Source: Oscillospiraceae bacterium (GTDB taxonomy: Bacteria > Bacillota > Clostridia > WRLR01). Taken from it: a DNA stretch of 63,074 nucleotides. Where the stretch lies: the NCBI GenBank assembly GCA_009777515.1, contig WRLR01000008.1:1-63074 (forward strand). Direction: 5' to 3'. The notes under the pieces were generated by a model. That model was not told the DNA's origin and ran no database searches. It worked only from the letters and a program-made list of their open reading frames with translations. This document shows positions 34,556-39,991 of the stretch, one piece after another. The first letter of the stretch is position 1. Each line of letters starts with the position of its first letter. The position numbers and the translations under genes were made by a program.

Positions 34556-35410
34556 TCAAGCCCTGGACTGCATCACCTTTCTCATGAGCATCGCCCCCGC
34601 CTCGTTGGGGGTATCGGACCTCTTTATCTGGTAGTCCAATGGGCTGATGACCCTGCGGGCCTGCGCCAACTGGAACGCGGCATTGTTATACTCATTGGCG
34701 CCTTTTCCGCACTCGACCGCCCACACGCCGGCATAGCCTGCCTCCGCCAGGGGCGGCAACTGCTTGTCGGCATTCACGCAGGCGTCATAATGCAAATGCA
34801 TGTGCATGGCCTTGGGTGCAATCTCCAGGTCACAGGCATCCTTTTCGTCCTGGGTTTCGCACTGCCAGTTGCCCAGGTGCAGCAGCACGGCAAAATTTTT
34901 CGCCTTGACCGCCTGGTACAGCTTGCGGATCACTTTTATGTCTGTCGACGCGCCCCAATGGTTCTCCGTCCCCAGCTTCGCGCCGAACCCGTCGACTGCG
35001 GAGCAGTACTCGTCATACTTTTTCGCGCAGTGCTCAATCTGCTCGTCGGTGGCCTGCCTGGGCCCGATCCCCATATCGATGCGGACCGTCTCGGCGCCCA
35101 ATACCCGGGCAGCTTTCAACACGTTCTGCGCATTTTGGGTGCATAGCCTCTCTTCTTTTTCGTCGTCGTTCCACACATGCGCAAAGTCGCAGCACAGGTT
35201 CACCAACGACAGGCCGCGCTCGTCCATTTGCGCCTTGACCATTGTCAAATAGTCGTCCTCGTAGCTTGCGAGCATAGGGCTCCAAATATCAGCGGTCGAG
35301 AGTCCGTACCGATATCGGACAGTTTCAAAATACTGGATCAAATTCATTGCGCCATTGCTGAACAGTCCATTGAACGAATACGCAGCAATAGAAAAACGTG
35401 GTTGTGCCAT
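34556..35410 (-). CDS. Sugar phosphate isomerase/epimerase (TIM barrel)
   Basis: Xylose-isomerase-like TIM-barrel protein of the AP endonuclease 2 superfamily. Visible are FSIAAYSFNGLFSNG at the start, ETVRIDMGIGPRQATDE, GTENHWGASTDIK with a likely metal-binding Glu-His pair, MHLHYDACVNAD, and AVECGKGANE near the end. The exact reaction is unknown. The ATG follows GAGAGG by 6 bp, and a strong promoter lies upstream (35457-35485). It is 119 bp upstream of the Nif3-like gene on the same strand. Confidence 0.88.
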   Translation of the reverse strand: MAQPRFSIAAYSFNGLFSNGAMNLIQYFETVRYRYGLSTADIWSPMLASYEDDYLTMVKAQMDERGLSLVNLCCDFAHVWNDDEKEERLCTQNAQNVLKAARVLGAETVRIDMGIGPRQATDEQIEHCAKKYDEYCSAVDGFGAKLGTENHWGASTDIKVIRKLYQAVKAKNFAVLLHLGNWQCETQDEKDACDLEIAPKAMHMHLHYDACVNADKQLPPLAEAGYAGVWAVECGKGANEYNNAAFQLAQARRVISPLDYQIKRSDTPNEAGAMLMRKVMQSRA

Positions 35411-35654: not shown

Positions 35655-35680
35655 AAAAAACCGCCCCGCAGGGAGCGGCC
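35655..35680 (-). terminator. Intrinsic terminator after the zinc-ribbon gene
   Basis: On the minus strand CCGCTCCC, a TGC loop and GGGGCGG are followed by TTTTTT. It lies about 30 bp past the stop of the gene at 35709 and marks the left end of the AT-rich island. Confidence 0.8.
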
Positions 35681-35708
35681 TTTTCATTGTTCTAATAGGT
35701 ATAATGGC

Positions 35709-35969
35709 TTAATCAGCCAGACCTTTAGCTAAATTACGTTCGCGTTCTTCCACTATAGCTTGTTCAATGCTTTTATATTTACGGTTTGGGGGTATAGATC
35801 CACAATCAACATGCTCTGACTCGGAACAATCATTACACCATATATCCAGACATGCTCGACCGCTTTTTTTCTTTATATATGTATAATCTGTATTATTACT
35901 TTTACAAAAAGGGCATTCACCAACTATGCCTTCTTTTATCAAAATCGATAAATTATTATTCCATTTCAT
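35709..35969 (-). CDS. Hypothetical zinc-ribbon protein
   Basis: An 86-residue protein with two Cys pairs, CPFC near residue 19 and CNDC near residue 46 (WCNDCSESEHVDC), suggesting a zinc ribbon. No family is recognised. It is AT-rich, unlike the genome backbone, and lies just downstream of the decayed toxin/immunity pair with its own terminator. It could be a second immunity or cargo gene of that cassette; this is inferred from position only. Confidence 0.6.
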   Translation of the reverse strand: MKWNNNLSILIKEGIVGECPFCKSNNTDYTYIKKKSGRACLDIWCNDCSESEHVDCGSIPPNRKYKSIEQAIVEERERNLAKGLAD

Positions 35970-36001
35970 TTTATTAGGCTCGCTTCATGATGCAATTTAT
36001 T

Positions 36002-36462
36002 TTAATTCTTATATGAATCAGTTATGTCAGCATAATAATCATCGCGAACTCCATCTAAAAAATATCTGATATATGGGGGATCGCTTCTTTCGATGATAGC
36101 TTACTCCCATTCTTCTTGTGCTTTTAGTAGTTGCTGTTGTTGATCATGATTTGCTTCCGGGTATTTTTCGAGAATATTCAATATATTCTGCCTTCCTTAG
36201 CCAATTCATTCCAGACCAAAATAATCATGCAATGATTGTTAATGCTTTTATTACGATGTCTTTATGAAAACGTTCAATGCTATACTGCGGCTTGCTTTGA
36301 GGTTCGCCATTGCAAAACAAATTATATGAATCTGTCCAATCTTTACCAGTCACCCGCTCATATTCTAAAAAATCGGACATTAGATTATCTTTACCATAAT
36401 GTTTAGCATATTGATATTCTTCACCTACTGTACTAGCCAAATCATATGCTAACAATGCTCAT
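36002..36462 (-). pseudogene. Decayed immunity-like gene downstream of the toxin remnant
   Basis: The ATG overlaps the toxin-remnant stop (ATGA). The first frame stops after six codons, then another frame continues for ~75 residues (LAYDLASTVGEEYQYAKHYG, TGKDWTDSYNLFCNGE). After further shifts come VWNELAKEG, NILEKYPEANHDQQQQLLKA, a TAA replacing a codon after AQEEWE, and RYFLDGVRDDYYADITDSYK. At least three frameshifts and one nonsense change are needed to join them. The family is not recognised; the immunity role is inferred from coupling to the toxin-like gene. Confidence 0.5.
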
Positions 36463-37293
36463 ACCCCCTCGAAAAACATTTTTTTAAAGACAATAATAAT
36501 AATATCATCTAATATACCATCAAATTCAGGTATTTCGATACAATTTGCCTTTAGATAACTCATATTTGCAAATATTTCTTGTGCCCGTGATTGAGAATCC
36601 CAATTTTTATGTCCATACTGTACCTTTATAATATTATTTGACAACGCGTTTAATATATCTTGAAATGCGGGATTAACATTGCCCAATGATTTATACAAAA
36701 TATTATATTTATTAATATCGCTTTTTATTTTATCTACAGCAATATTAATTGTACTAATAAATTCTTTATGCTGCCAAGATAAAATATTAAATAATCATAC
36801 CTATGTGCTAACTCGTGACTAAAAATCACATTAGCATTTTGTTGGAATTGTTTCAGTTTTAAAAATCTTTCATTGTATGTCAGAGCATCTTTACTAGGAT
36901 CATACCCAATTGGAGACATCTGTAATGGATTTAAGTATCTTTGTATGATCTGCGTAATATAAGTAAATACCTTTATATGGGTTGGGCATATTTTAAATAT
37001 GTCCCTTGAACTCATCAAGACCTTTTAACAATGATTTTTCAGCATTTATTAAAATGCCAGACTCACGCATTTGCTCTATCTCCATATTTGTTGGTTGGCG
37101 CTCATATATTTTTATTATACCATCTCCGTCCCCGCCGTCAACGTGCTGCGCCCTCCACTCATTATACTTCATTTCGGCGGGGACGCTGTAGGTCTCCCCG
37201 TCCCCTTCGCGGGCGGCGCGTTCGCTGCCGGTGGCGCCGTCGTCGAAGTATGGGGCGGTGGTGCAGCGGCACCAGGGGTGGAACGGGGGGGGG
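36459..37293 (-). pseudogene. Remnant of a MuF-type phage head protein with C-terminal HExxH toxin-like domain
   Basis: Frame A (37293-36993) reads PPFHPWCRCTTAPYFDDG and then YSVPAEMKYNEWRAQHVDGG, the signature end of SPP1-gp7/MuF head-morphogenesis proteins. A shift near 37000 leads to frame B, with YDPSKDALTYNERF and NVIFSHELAHRYDYL, an HExxH zincin motif. A second shift near 36782 leads to frame C (SWQHKEFISTINIAVDKIKS and on to FEGV, stop 36459). The MuF N-terminal part is missing: upstream lies a 9-C run, then unrelated sequence. The piece is AT-rich except for the MuF part. This is a broken phage-borne polymorphic toxin. Confidence 0.7.
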
Positions 37294-37588
37294 ATCTAAT
37301 AGGTATGAAAATAATTACAAAAAAAGAAGTCCCTTGAACTTCTCCTGGTTCTTATTCATAATTTTTAACTCATGCTTTTACCGTGGAAAGTTTATGGTTT
37401 AATACACAGTAGATTCGAAAAATTAAATTCATCTCTTTACAATTCCTTACACAACGGCGGAAATATTGCTTTGCGCATAAAATACTATATTTTGGTATAA
37501 TATAGATGGTGAATATAAAGTTGCGCGGGGATGTGCGGAAATTTGTGGGAACGCGTGGGCATCTGGCATATATGAAGGGAGCGTGGCG
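37294..37588. other. Gene-free junction upstream of the glycyl radical enzyme
   Basis: No gene was found. A TATAAT box near 37496-37501 with TTGCGC 19 bp upstream may be the promoter of the glycyl radical enzyme. The 9-bp G run at 37285-37293 marks the break point of the phage-derived piece. Confidence 0.4.
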
Positions 37589-39991
37589 TTGTTGACGATG
37601 TTGAGGACGAACGAACGTGTTAGGGAGATAAATAAGAGCATCAGGAGCAGTATGCTGCGGCAAAAGCATGGGGGGCCAGGCGCCGGGAGCGTACTATCGT
37701 TGCCGGGGGCGGACGGTGAGCCTCTCATTGTGAGGAACGCGCTAGCCGTGAAGATGAAGCTCTCAACTGTGCCCATTGCGATATGGCCGGGCCAGTTGAT
37801 TCCCGGCAGCATAGCGCTTCCCGGCAGCGACGTTCTGCTTTGCGGCTCGCTGCCCGAATATGCGACGCCGAACGAAGTGGCCGCTGCGGCCGCGAGGGGC
37901 ATCGGCGTCGGTTCCATAGTCGGCCACATCGCCCCATCGTATCCCAAGCTGCTAAAAAAAGGCGCGTCAGGCATCAAGCGGGACGCGGAACGCTACATAC
38001 AGACGTTGCAATCGGAGGGCGCGGGGGGTGTGGCGGGCGCGGGGGGCGCGAGGGGCGCGGAAGGTTCGGAGAGTAGGAAAAGCACTGCGGGCGCGGCGAG
38101 AGCGGGGGACGCAGAAGGCTCTATAGCGTTTTACCGAGCCTGCGCCATTGTGATGGAGGCGCTGGAACTGTTCGCGCACAGGCACGCCGCCCTCTGCGAA
38201 GAGCTTGCCGCAGGGGAAGCGGGCGAGGTAGACGCTGAAAGGTGCGCGGAGCTTGCCCGCATGGCCGCCGACCTGCGGGTCGCGCCGGGCGGCCCGCCCG
38301 AAACGTTCACTCAGGCCGTGACTGCCATATGGCTTACGCACCTCGCGTTCCAGCTCACCGGCAACCACCTCGCGATCGGGCGCTTCGACCAGCATGTATA
38401 CCCATATCTCGAAGCCGATCTGGCAAACGGAACCATTACAATGGACGAGGCGCAGGAGATCGTCGACTGCTTCTTCCTCAAATTCAACGAGCGCTCCGTG
38501 GACAACAGCATCCCCTACCAAAACACCGACTTTGACAAGGCGCGGGAGCGCAACGAGGCCAAATGGGCCGAGCGCACTCCGTTCGACCACAGCACCCAGC
38601 GCGTGAACGCTCGCGACAATGTGGACGCGACCAACCATTGGCTGCAGAACGTCATCATCGGCGGCACGAAACCGGACGGGGGCGACGCCGTCAACGCGGT
38701 CACATACATGTGCCTCGATGCATTCGACAAGAACCGCATGACCAACCCGTGCCTCACGGTACGTCTGTCATCCGGCTCCCCGGACGAAATATACAAAAAG
38801 AGCTGCGAGACATTATTAAACGGCGGCGGGCTGCCGGCATTTTTCAACGACGACGCGATCATCCCGGCCCTTGTAAAATGGGGCATCGCCATCGAGGACG
38901 CCCGCGACTATACGAACGACGGCTGCTGGGAGATCATCATCGCCGGGCAGAACGATTTTTACTTCGACCGCTTCAACATGCTACGCTGCCTCGAATGGGC
39001 GCTCAACAGGGGCAAGAGCCGCGTCGACGGCAAGCAGGAGGCGCCCGACCCGGGCGATGCGGCGGCGTTTGCGACGTACGATAAAGTATACGGTACTTTC
39101 CTTGACGAACTGTTCTTCGAGTTGGATGGGCTTATGGCCAAAAACCACCGCGAATTTGGCAGCCGGTACGGCATAGCGCCCGTGCCGCTCCTGTCGGCGC
39201 TGTTGGCGGGGCCGATGGAACTGGGCGACGACATGACCAGGGCCGGCGCGAAGTATGTGACTTACGGGCTGATCGCGGAGGGTGTCTCCCATGTGATCGA
39301 TTCGCTCGCCGCTATAAAAAAAGTGATATTCGAAGACGGCGCCGCCACAATGGCAGAGTTGATAATGGCGCTGGACGACAATTTCGAGGGGCATGATGCG
39401 CTCAGGGCCAAGCTCCTCGCCGCACCGAAATACGGCAGGAACGACAAGTACGCCGACGATATTGGCAAAGACGTGTTCGACATGTTCGCCGAAAAAGTGG
39501 CGGAGCTCAACAAAAAATACACCAACATGATTTTCCTGCCGGGCGCGGGTACGTTTTCATGGTACATCGCCATCGGCGAGGGCTGCGGGCCGTCGCCCGA
39601 CGGGCGCCTCGCCAACGAGGCGGTCAGCAGCAACCTGTCGCCCTCGACTGGCGCGGCGACGCGGGGCGTCACCGGCTCCATACTGTCGCACGCGGCGTTC
39701 GACATGGGCAACCTGCCCGTCGGCTCGCCGACCGACCTGCGCCTCTCGTCAAAGCACGTGGAGGGCGAGGCGGGGATGGCCCGGTTGATCAGCATCGTGA
39801 AAAGCTTTGTATCGCTGGGAGGGAACATGCTGACGCTCACGATAGCGGACACGGGTCTGTTGAGGAAGGCGCAAGCCGAGCCGGAGAACTACAGAGACCT
39901 CCGTGTGCGGATGGGCGGCTGGTCCGCGTATTTCACCATGCTCTCGAAAGAGCAACAGGAGCACCACATAAAAAAAGAAGAAGAGGTATAG
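37589..39991 (+). CDS. Glycyl radical enzyme (pyruvate formate-lyase family), substrate unknown
   Basis: Oxygen-sensitive radical enzyme. The Gly-radical motif is VRMGGWSAYF near the C-terminus. The thiyl Cys lies in YTNDGCWEIIIAG; the Cys-x-Glu pair resembles the dehydratase/lyase group (GCVE) more than true PFL (CC). GGGLPAFFNDD and SPSTGAATRGVTG are also family marks. A Gly/Ala/Arg low-complexity stretch lies near residues 145-180. A TTG 7 bp after AAGGGAG is the likely start; a GTG 6 bp earlier and an ATG 9 bp later are alternatives. No radical SAM activase is encoded nearby, although one is required. Confidence 0.93.
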   Translation: MLTMLRTNERVREINKSIRSSMLRQKHGGPGAGSVLSLPGADGEPLIVRNALAVKMKLSTVPIAIWPGQLIPGSIALPGSDVLLCGSLPEYATPNEVAAAAARGIGVGSIVGHIAPSYPKLLKKGASGIKRDAERYIQTLQSEGAGGVAGAGGARGAEGSESRKSTAGAARAGDAEGSIAFYRACAIVMEALELFAHRHAALCEELAAGEAGEVDAERCAELARMAADLRVAPGGPPETFTQAVTAIWLTHLAFQLTGNHLAIGRFDQHVYPYLEADLANGTITMDEAQEIVDCFFLKFNERSVDNSIPYQNTDFDKARERNEAKWAERTPFDHSTQRVNARDNVDATNHWLQNVIIGGTKPDGGDAVNAVTYMCLDAFDKNRMTNPCLTVRLSSGSPDEIYKKSCETLLNGGGLPAFFNDDAIIPALVKWGIAIEDARDYTNDGCWEIIIAGQNDFYFDRFNMLRCLEWALNRGKSRVDGKQEAPDPGDAAAFATYDKVYGTFLDELFFELDGLMAKNHREFGSRYGIAPVPLLSALLAGPMELGDDMTRAGAKYVTYGLIAEGVSHVIDSLAAIKKVIFEDGAATMAELIMALDDNFEGHDALRAKLLAAPKYGRNDKYADDIGKDVFDMFAEKVAELNKKYTNMIFLPGAGTFSWYIAIGEGCGPSPDGRLANEAVSSNLSPSTGAATRGVTGSILSHAAFDMGNLPVGSPTDLRLSSKHVEGEAGMARLISIVKSFVSLGGNMLTLTIADTGLLRKAQAEPENYRDLRVRMGGWSAYFTMLSKEQQEHHIKKEEEV

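What the first reader, a model, noticed from the sequence alone, without database searches (positions are those of the whole stretch)
35709..37293. Decayed MuF phage-head/toxin/immunity cassette left as an orphan island
On the minus strand, three frames joined by two frameshifts give a MuF-type C-terminus (PPFHPWCRC, VPAEMKYNEW), a domain with HELAHRYD and then SWQHKEFISTINIAVDKIK. The stop overlaps an ATG that opens a frameshifted, nonsense-bearing downstream gene, followed by a zinc-ribbon ORF and a terminator. This looks like a phage-borne polymorphic toxin with its immunity gene, captured without the rest of the prophage and now degenerating. The HExxH toxin family and its immunity partner are not ones I can name.
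Basis: partly seen in the sequence, partly recalled or inferred. Interest (0 to 1): 0.75.

Follow-up and report, generated by a model that had tools for sequence, protein, structure and literature searches.

The report
Orphan phage toxin–immunity cassette, toxin decayed
A bacterial chromosome carries the tail end of a phage head protein fused to a predicted protein-cutting toxin, now broken, still followed by apparently intact protective genes, and similar phage-free fragments in other genomes suggest that bacteria repeatedly keep such pieces of phage weaponry.

Summary
On the minus strand, 37295-36462 is the last ~58 residues of a MuF minor head protein followed by a ~200-aa HExxH (zincin-like) domain. 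An intact relative exists: a 558-aa MuF-zincin, 52-58% identical in the toxin part, in the head module (portal ... scaffold, major head) of a prophage in a termite-gut Clostridiales MAG. Searches widened this to a family of MuF C-termini in C. difficile, Listeria and gut phages; every member examined is followed by a 50-162 aa gene. In the window the toxin has lost its 5' end and start and carries two frameshifts plus one in-frame stop. Correction: the cognate downstream gene is intact (36455-36225, TTG start). The broken gene is a third one behind it; then comes an intact zinc-ribbon gene whose relatives sit behind another phage head protein with a metallopeptidase-like tail and in a toxin/immunity-like cluster. 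No phage gene surrounds the cassette. Other genomes of the class show the same layout (5'-truncated MuF end + toxin + small gene in phage-free chromosome). So this is a decayed orphan MuF toxin/immunity module: a known toxin kind in a little-described state. Toxicity and immunity are inferred, not shown.

The parts
37289..37386 (.). Remnant of an insertion-sequence end: terminal-repeat-like stretch CACGGTAAAAGCATGAGTTAA, a terminator-like hairpin, then the junction with the cassette at a C tract
   Evidence: 89% identical to one end of a 2.06-kb element with an ISAs1-like transposase on contig C54; the transposase label is from my reading of the sequence
37295..37306 (-). Left copy of the 12-bp direct repeat ATACCTATTAGA that brackets the island
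   Evidence: chance of a shared 12-mer in the two 40-bp boundary zones about 6.5e-5, but a 12-mer repeat somewhere in the region is expected in 37% of simulations
37119..37295 (-). C-terminal ~58 residues of a MuF minor head protein (PPPFHPWCRC ... VPAEMKYNEW); G+C-rich; 5' part of the gene missing
   Evidence: PHROG 115 minor head 2e-19, phage head proteins 52-58%, MuF model positions 103-159 of 164 only, E 2.3e-20
37114..37141 (-). Promoter-like TTGACG-16-TATAAT (11 of 12, TG before the second hexamer) at the MuF/toxin seam; function untested
   Evidence: consensus match only
36459..37118 (-). Broken HExxH (zincin-like) toxin domain incl. stop: in-frame TAA 36995-36993, frameshifts near 36945-36925 and 36795-36779; A+T-rich
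   Evidence: HELAHRYD 36817-36794 and EIFA 36578-36567 preserved
36225..36455 (-). Intact 76-aa cognate partner gene (TTG start, GAGGGGG 8 nt upstream): predicted immunity protein
   Evidence: BLASTP 36% over 58 aa, 5e-14, to P0007, the gene directly behind the intact toxin gene in L001
36005..36224 (-). Third, broken small gene (pieces in two frames, internal stop); origin unknown
   Evidence: no Pfam or phage relative found
35709..35969 (-). Intact 86-aa zinc-ribbon gene, predicted second immunity-like gene from another MuF-type system
   Evidence: 41% over 54 aa, 1e-8, to a gene overlapping the end of a minor head protein with a SprT-like tail in phage MT835767; weaker relatives in G049 and in a toxin/immunity-like cluster of G329
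35691..35702 (-). Right copy of the 12-bp direct repeat ATACCTATTAGA
35655..35680 (-). Terminator-like hairpin GGCCGCTCCCTGCGGGGCGGTTTTTT closing the island
   Evidence: sequence, (seen by eye; the scan reports a neighbouring hairpin at 35665-35639)

Best explanation
This is a decayed orphan module of a MuF-type (phage-borne) polymorphic toxin. In intact relatives the MuF part is a minor protein of the phage head (shown by homology and gene order). The C-terminal zincin-like domain is carried in the virion and enters the next cell, where it would cleave a protein (inferred from the family). The small gene right behind protects the lysogen by binding the toxin (inferred). In this chromosome only the end of the MuF gene, the toxin, its partner and two further small genes remain. 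The toxin can no longer be made, because its start is lost and its frame broken, while the partner and a zinc-ribbon gene are still open reading frames. These may be kept as immunity against incoming phages with such toxins, or be a passing remnant. The seam beside an insertion-sequence remnant suggests acquisition or trimming by illegitimate recombination near that element.
For: Intact 558-aa homologue in a portal ... MuF-zincin - partner - scaffold - major head order. Family of 12 domain sequences sharing HExxH..D, D..SAL, H..W and EIFA, every intact member examined followed within -10 to +15 nt by a small gene. Window partner homologous and intact. Zinc-ribbon relatives sit behind another MuF-like toxin candidate and in a toxin/immunity-like cluster. 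No other MuF match in this genome. The nearest flanking genes tested are metabolic or housekeeping. Other orphan modules without phage neighbours: G215 C38, G090 C1; with only an integrase and repressor: G049 C2; beside a transposase: G283 C7.
Against: No experiment shows toxicity, immunity or protease activity for this sub-family. The structural match to zincins is weak: mean pLDDT 80, but no Foldseek hit at E<=0.001, best 0.14 in PDB and 0.0046 in BFVD. The intactness of two short genes is not strong evidence of selection. The genome is a draft with 91% completeness and 7.5% contamination, so a lost prophage elsewhere cannot be excluded.
Confidence: 0.8

Rival explanations
1. Plain prophage remnant: a whole prophage once sat here and all but the MuF end and its followers was deleted; nothing about the piece is selected or special.
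For: 5' truncation abuts an insertion-sequence remnant at a C tract, as expected of a deletion junction. Toxin and third gene are decaying. MuF genes in bacterial chromosomes are mostly in prophages or remnants (PMC5576092).
Against: No other phage gene nearby. At least two other genomes keep the same stretch (MuF end + toxin + small gene) in phage-free surroundings with open frames. Two small genes from apparently different toxin systems are stacked behind the toxin.
Confidence: 0.35
2. A reservoir cassette: the kept end of MuF is a stretch of homology through which an incoming MuF phage could exchange its toxin, as proposed for orphan CdiA-CT/CdiI and Rhs modules.
For: The retained part starts at the most conserved motif before the variable domain (PPxHPxCRC). 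G215 and G090 orphans start within about 35 residues of the same motif. G049 has two tandem modules with near-identical MuF parts and different C-termini.
Against: The window copy is broken and would donate a dead toxin. No exchange event was observed. Other orphans do not share the 12-bp repeats.
Confidence: 0.2
3. The HExxH domain is not a toxin but a virion or injection-time processing protease, and the small gene is its inhibitor or chaperone.
For: Zincin-like domains in phage polyvalent proteins are proposed to process those proteins (PMC5512222).
Against: It occupies the variable toxin position of MuF toxins, is followed by a small gene in all members examined, and homologous MuF genes carry other toxin-type ends (polymorphic toxin type 50).
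Confidence: 0.2
4. The frameshifts are assembly errors and the toxin frame is open.
For: Draft genome of 272 contigs; reads not available.
Against: Three separate lesions in about 280 codons, a broken third gene, and a missing 5' end and start that no base error explains.
Confidence: 0.08

Closest known systems
MuF polymorphic toxins of temperate phages (Jamet et al. 2017, PMC5576092)
   Same: MuF minor head domain, C-terminal effector domain (20% of their 191 toxins had a metallopeptidase domain), small ORF directly downstream, Firmicutes
   Different: Here the MuF domain is truncated to its last residues, there is no prophage, and the toxin is broken. The sub-family reaches no Pfam or NCBIfam cut-off.
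Bxa/BAH/Bsi and Apk2 MuF toxins (PMC11699363)
   Same: MuF toxins with adjacent immunity genes, several small genes behind the toxin; neutralisation was shown for those
   Different: ADP-ribosyltransferase and alarmone synthetase ends, not a zincin; intact and in prophages
Orphan CdiA-CT/CdiI and Rhs toxin/immunity modules (PMC3150448, found, abstract only)
   Same: Toxin end plus immunity gene separated from the delivery part, kept in the chromosome
   Different: Unrelated delivery protein; here derived from a phage head protein
Zincin-like metallopeptidase domains of phage polyvalent proteins and polymorphic toxins (PF18818, PF07737-like; PMC5512222, PMC3482391)
   Same: HExxH and a downstream Glu motif, C-terminal position
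   Different: Only sub-threshold profile matches (best 0.0037, one of 12 members)

Membership tests
MuF polymorphic toxin | MuF domain at the N-terminal side | tested here: inconclusive
   Window keeps only the end of the domain (model positions 103-159; no Pfam match of the fragment). The intact homologue has PF04233 at 1.1e-18 and TIGR01641 at 2e-27.
MuF polymorphic toxin | Variable C-terminal toxin domain | tested here: met
   Same MuF tail joined to different ends in relatives: zincin-like here, polymorphic toxin type 50 annotated in C. difficile, two other ends in G049
MuF polymorphic toxin | Small ORF immediately downstream | tested here: met
   36455-36225, homologous to the gene behind the intact toxin
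MuF polymorphic toxin | Located in a temperate phage next to portal/terminase | tested here: not met
   No phage genes around the cassette; met in the intact homologue
MuF polymorphic toxin | Toxic to bacteria and neutralised by the small ORF | not testable with these tools
   Needs expression in a laboratory strain
Zincin metallopeptidase | HExxH motif with a distal acidic ligand | tested here: met
   H110, E111, H114 and E190 invariant in 12 sequences; kept in the window pieces
Zincin metallopeptidase | Zincin fold | tested here: inconclusive
   Best Foldseek hits are zincins (abylysin, selecase, IrrE, ArdC, lethal factor) but none at E<=0.001
Pfam ATLF / M91 / MPTase-PolyVal | Score above the curated cut-off | tested here: not met
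   Best E 0.0037, 0.033 and 0.081
Orphan toxin/immunity module (CDI/Rhs type) | Toxin end and immunity gene without the delivery part or start | tested here: met
   No MuF start, no other MuF match in the genome; similar cases G215, G090
Orphan toxin/immunity module (CDI/Rhs type) | Can recombine onto a full-length delivery gene | not testable with these tools
   No exchange event seen

The most novel reading that the evidence does not exclude
Bacteria of this class repeatedly keep orphan MuF toxin/immunity modules in phage-free chromosome, beginning near the conserved PPxHPxCRC motif, as chromosomal immunity against phage-delivered toxins and as a stock from which MuF phages can renew their toxin ends. 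Earlier surveys that looked for whole MuF domains or prophages would have missed them.
Probability: 0.3. Interest if true: 0.65.

Novelty: new variant of a known kind. Interest (0 to 1): 0.45.

Why it matters
MuF toxins are known almost only from prophages, and their use is unsettled. Chromosomal orphan modules whose immunity genes outlive the toxin would be a footprint of real toxin delivery by phages and make the weapon-or-lysogeny-switch question testable: does the orphan gene protect a non-lysogen from the phage? The zincin sub-family and its partner genes also add an uncurated toxin/immunity pair in C. difficile, Listeria and gut phages.

Tried and rejected
(1) The 12-bp direct repeats as a target-site duplication of a mobile cassette: the boundary coincidence is unlikely by chance (6.5e-5), but the left copy lies inside sequence shared with an insertion-sequence end (one mismatch on C54), there are no terminal inverted repeats, and the other orphan modules have none; left open. 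(2) The GATCCCCC block at the seam as a shared cassette boundary: other genomic copies belong to ends of a second insertion-sequence family and the window shares only about 8 bp of it; rejected. (3) RNA elements: none above Rfam cut-offs. (4) tRNA as integration site: none in the window. (5) Relatives of the third, broken gene: none. (6) Zinc-ribbon relatives in IMG/VR by pattern: none. (8) Direct PF04233 search of the own genome: no match, because the remnant lacks most of the domain. The broken toxin was never mended; its frames were searched as separate pieces.

Full report
WHAT IS THERE. Between a glycyl-radical enzyme gene (37583-39991, +) and a TIM-barrel isomerase-like gene (34556-35410, -) lies an A+T-rich island (G+C down to 0.28 against 0.52-0.65 around it) coded on the minus strand. 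Its first 177 bases (37295-37119) are G+C-rich and encode the end of a MuF minor head protein: PHROG 115 minor head protein E 2e-19, C. difficile and Brevibacillus phage head proteins at 52-58%. The MuF gene's 5' part is missing; a 164-position MuF model matches from position 103 only.

THE TOXIN PART. An intact relative was found at the first scan: L001, a 558-aa protein in a viral contig that is also contig WRHF01000021 of a termite-gut Clostridiales MAG. It has PF04233 (1.1e-18) and TIGR01641 (2e-27), lies between portal and scaffold/major head genes, and ends in a HELAHRYD domain. The window's two toxin frames align to it in order at 52% and 58%. Compared with it, the window copy has an in-frame TAA (36995-36993) and two frameshifts (about 36945-36925 and 36795-36779).

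THE FAMILY. Searches with the domain and its alignment found relatives in C. difficile phiCD418, Listeria B054 gp4, Subdoligranulum and other gut viral contigs. Twelve sequences share Y81, H110-E111-H114-D117, F129, D163, A167, H179, W182 and E190-I-F-A. Every intact member examined is followed by a gene of 50-162 aa starting within -10 to +15 nt of the stop; in one (L163) the partner appears duplicated internally. Most partners look alike (Y..x[YF]G...P.[YF]...Y...Y..KL), but the alignment is weak (24% mean column identity), so one common family is suggested, not proven. L001 and window partners are clearly homologous (5e-14). No member reaches a Pfam or NCBIfam cut-off. The model of the domain (pLDDT 80, pTM 0.78) is closest to zincins, with weak scores.

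The downstream gene is not frameshifted: it opens at TTG 36455, eight bases behind GAGGGGG, and runs to 36225 without a break; its first residue aligns to the start of the L001 partner. The broken reading belongs to a third gene (about 36224-36005) without known relatives. The zinc-ribbon gene (35969-35709) is intact. Its best relative overlaps the end of a minor head protein (PHROG 2494, 1.6e-50; weak SprT-like metallopeptidase tail with HEKCH) behind a portal gene in phage MT835767. Another relative is in what reads as a toxin/immunity cluster of G329, the label there being mine. It is therefore best read as a second immunity-like gene.

ORPHAN STATE. The own genome (4.54 Mb, 91% complete) holds no other MuF match, and the nearest flanking genes tested are metabolic or housekeeping. 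Among 391 genomes of the class, 78 have a MuF-tail match. Several strong matches lack the N-terminal half of the model: G090, G283, G289, G215, G221, G017 and the window. G215 (256-aa frame, PF04233 positions 75-111 only, no start before the motif) and G090 (255 aa, positions 71-112) sit in chromosome without phage genes next to them, each followed by a small open gene. G049 has an integrase and a repressor-like gene followed by two tandem MuF-toxin/small-gene modules and no portal or terminase. G283 has one beside a transposase-like gene. G289 and G150 have phage-like genes downstream and may be prophage ends. This is a small, hand-inspected sample.

THE SEAM. 37289-37386 matches the end of an insertion-sequence element on contig C54 (89%), and the MuF reading starts at a C tract shared with it, which suggests illegitimate recombination or deletion. 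A perfect 12-bp repeat (ATACCTATTAGA) brackets the island and occurs only three times in the genome, but other orphans have no such repeat, so no mobility claim is made.

HOW IT MOST LIKELY WORKS. Shown: homology to a MuF head protein with a C-terminal HExxH domain and a cognate downstream gene, loss of the toxin's start and frame, two open small genes. Inferred: the intact form is carried in the virion, enters the target cell and cleaves a protein; the small gene product blocks it. [quoted passage not shown] neutralisation by adjacent genes is shown for Bxa and Apk2 (PMC11699363). Retention of immunity genes without a toxin is known as polyimmunity in other systems (discussed in PMC11699363).

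NOVELTY. The toxin kind is known. The term orphan does not occur in the MuF survey, and no paper in the library combined the terms orphan, toxin-immunity, prophage and MuF. That survey found 96% of bacterial muf genes in prophages or remnants. A phage-free, 5'-truncated MuF module is thus a little-described variant; absence from this library is not proof that it is undescribed.

Noticed in passing
window 37114-37141 (-): Promoter-like sequence, 11 of 12 with TG before the second hexamer, exactly where the G+C-rich MuF tail turns into A+T-rich toxin DNA; might transcribe the immunity genes without a phage promoter.
   Followed up: no
L166 3226-6616 (G049:C2): Two tandem MuF-toxin/small-gene modules with near-identical MuF parts and different C-terminal ends, behind an integrase and a repressor-like gene, no portal or terminase.
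   Followed up: partly
L202 4162-4929 (-) (G215:C38): Orphan MuF end starting about 30 residues before PPMHPNCRC, with a different toxin-like end (HTHPG...PSPGD) and an 86-aa gene behind it, in housekeeping surroundings.
   Followed up: partly
own genome contigs C53, C107, C136, C54: Dispersed insertion-sequence end repeat (GATCCCCCTACAACCTATGTTCCTGTGACCCAAG...); on C107 two inverted copies enclose a 521-aa transposase-like frame.
   Followed up: partly
L163 3972-4460 (reverse-complement coordinates; G245:C38): Downstream partner gene of a MuF-zincin is internally duplicated (162 aa, two copies of the ~50-aa unit).
   Followed up: no
L159 3306-4728 (MT835767.1): Another MuF-like head protein with a SprT-like HEKCH tail followed by an overlapping zinc-ribbon gene: a candidate toxin/immunity pair.
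   Followed up: partly
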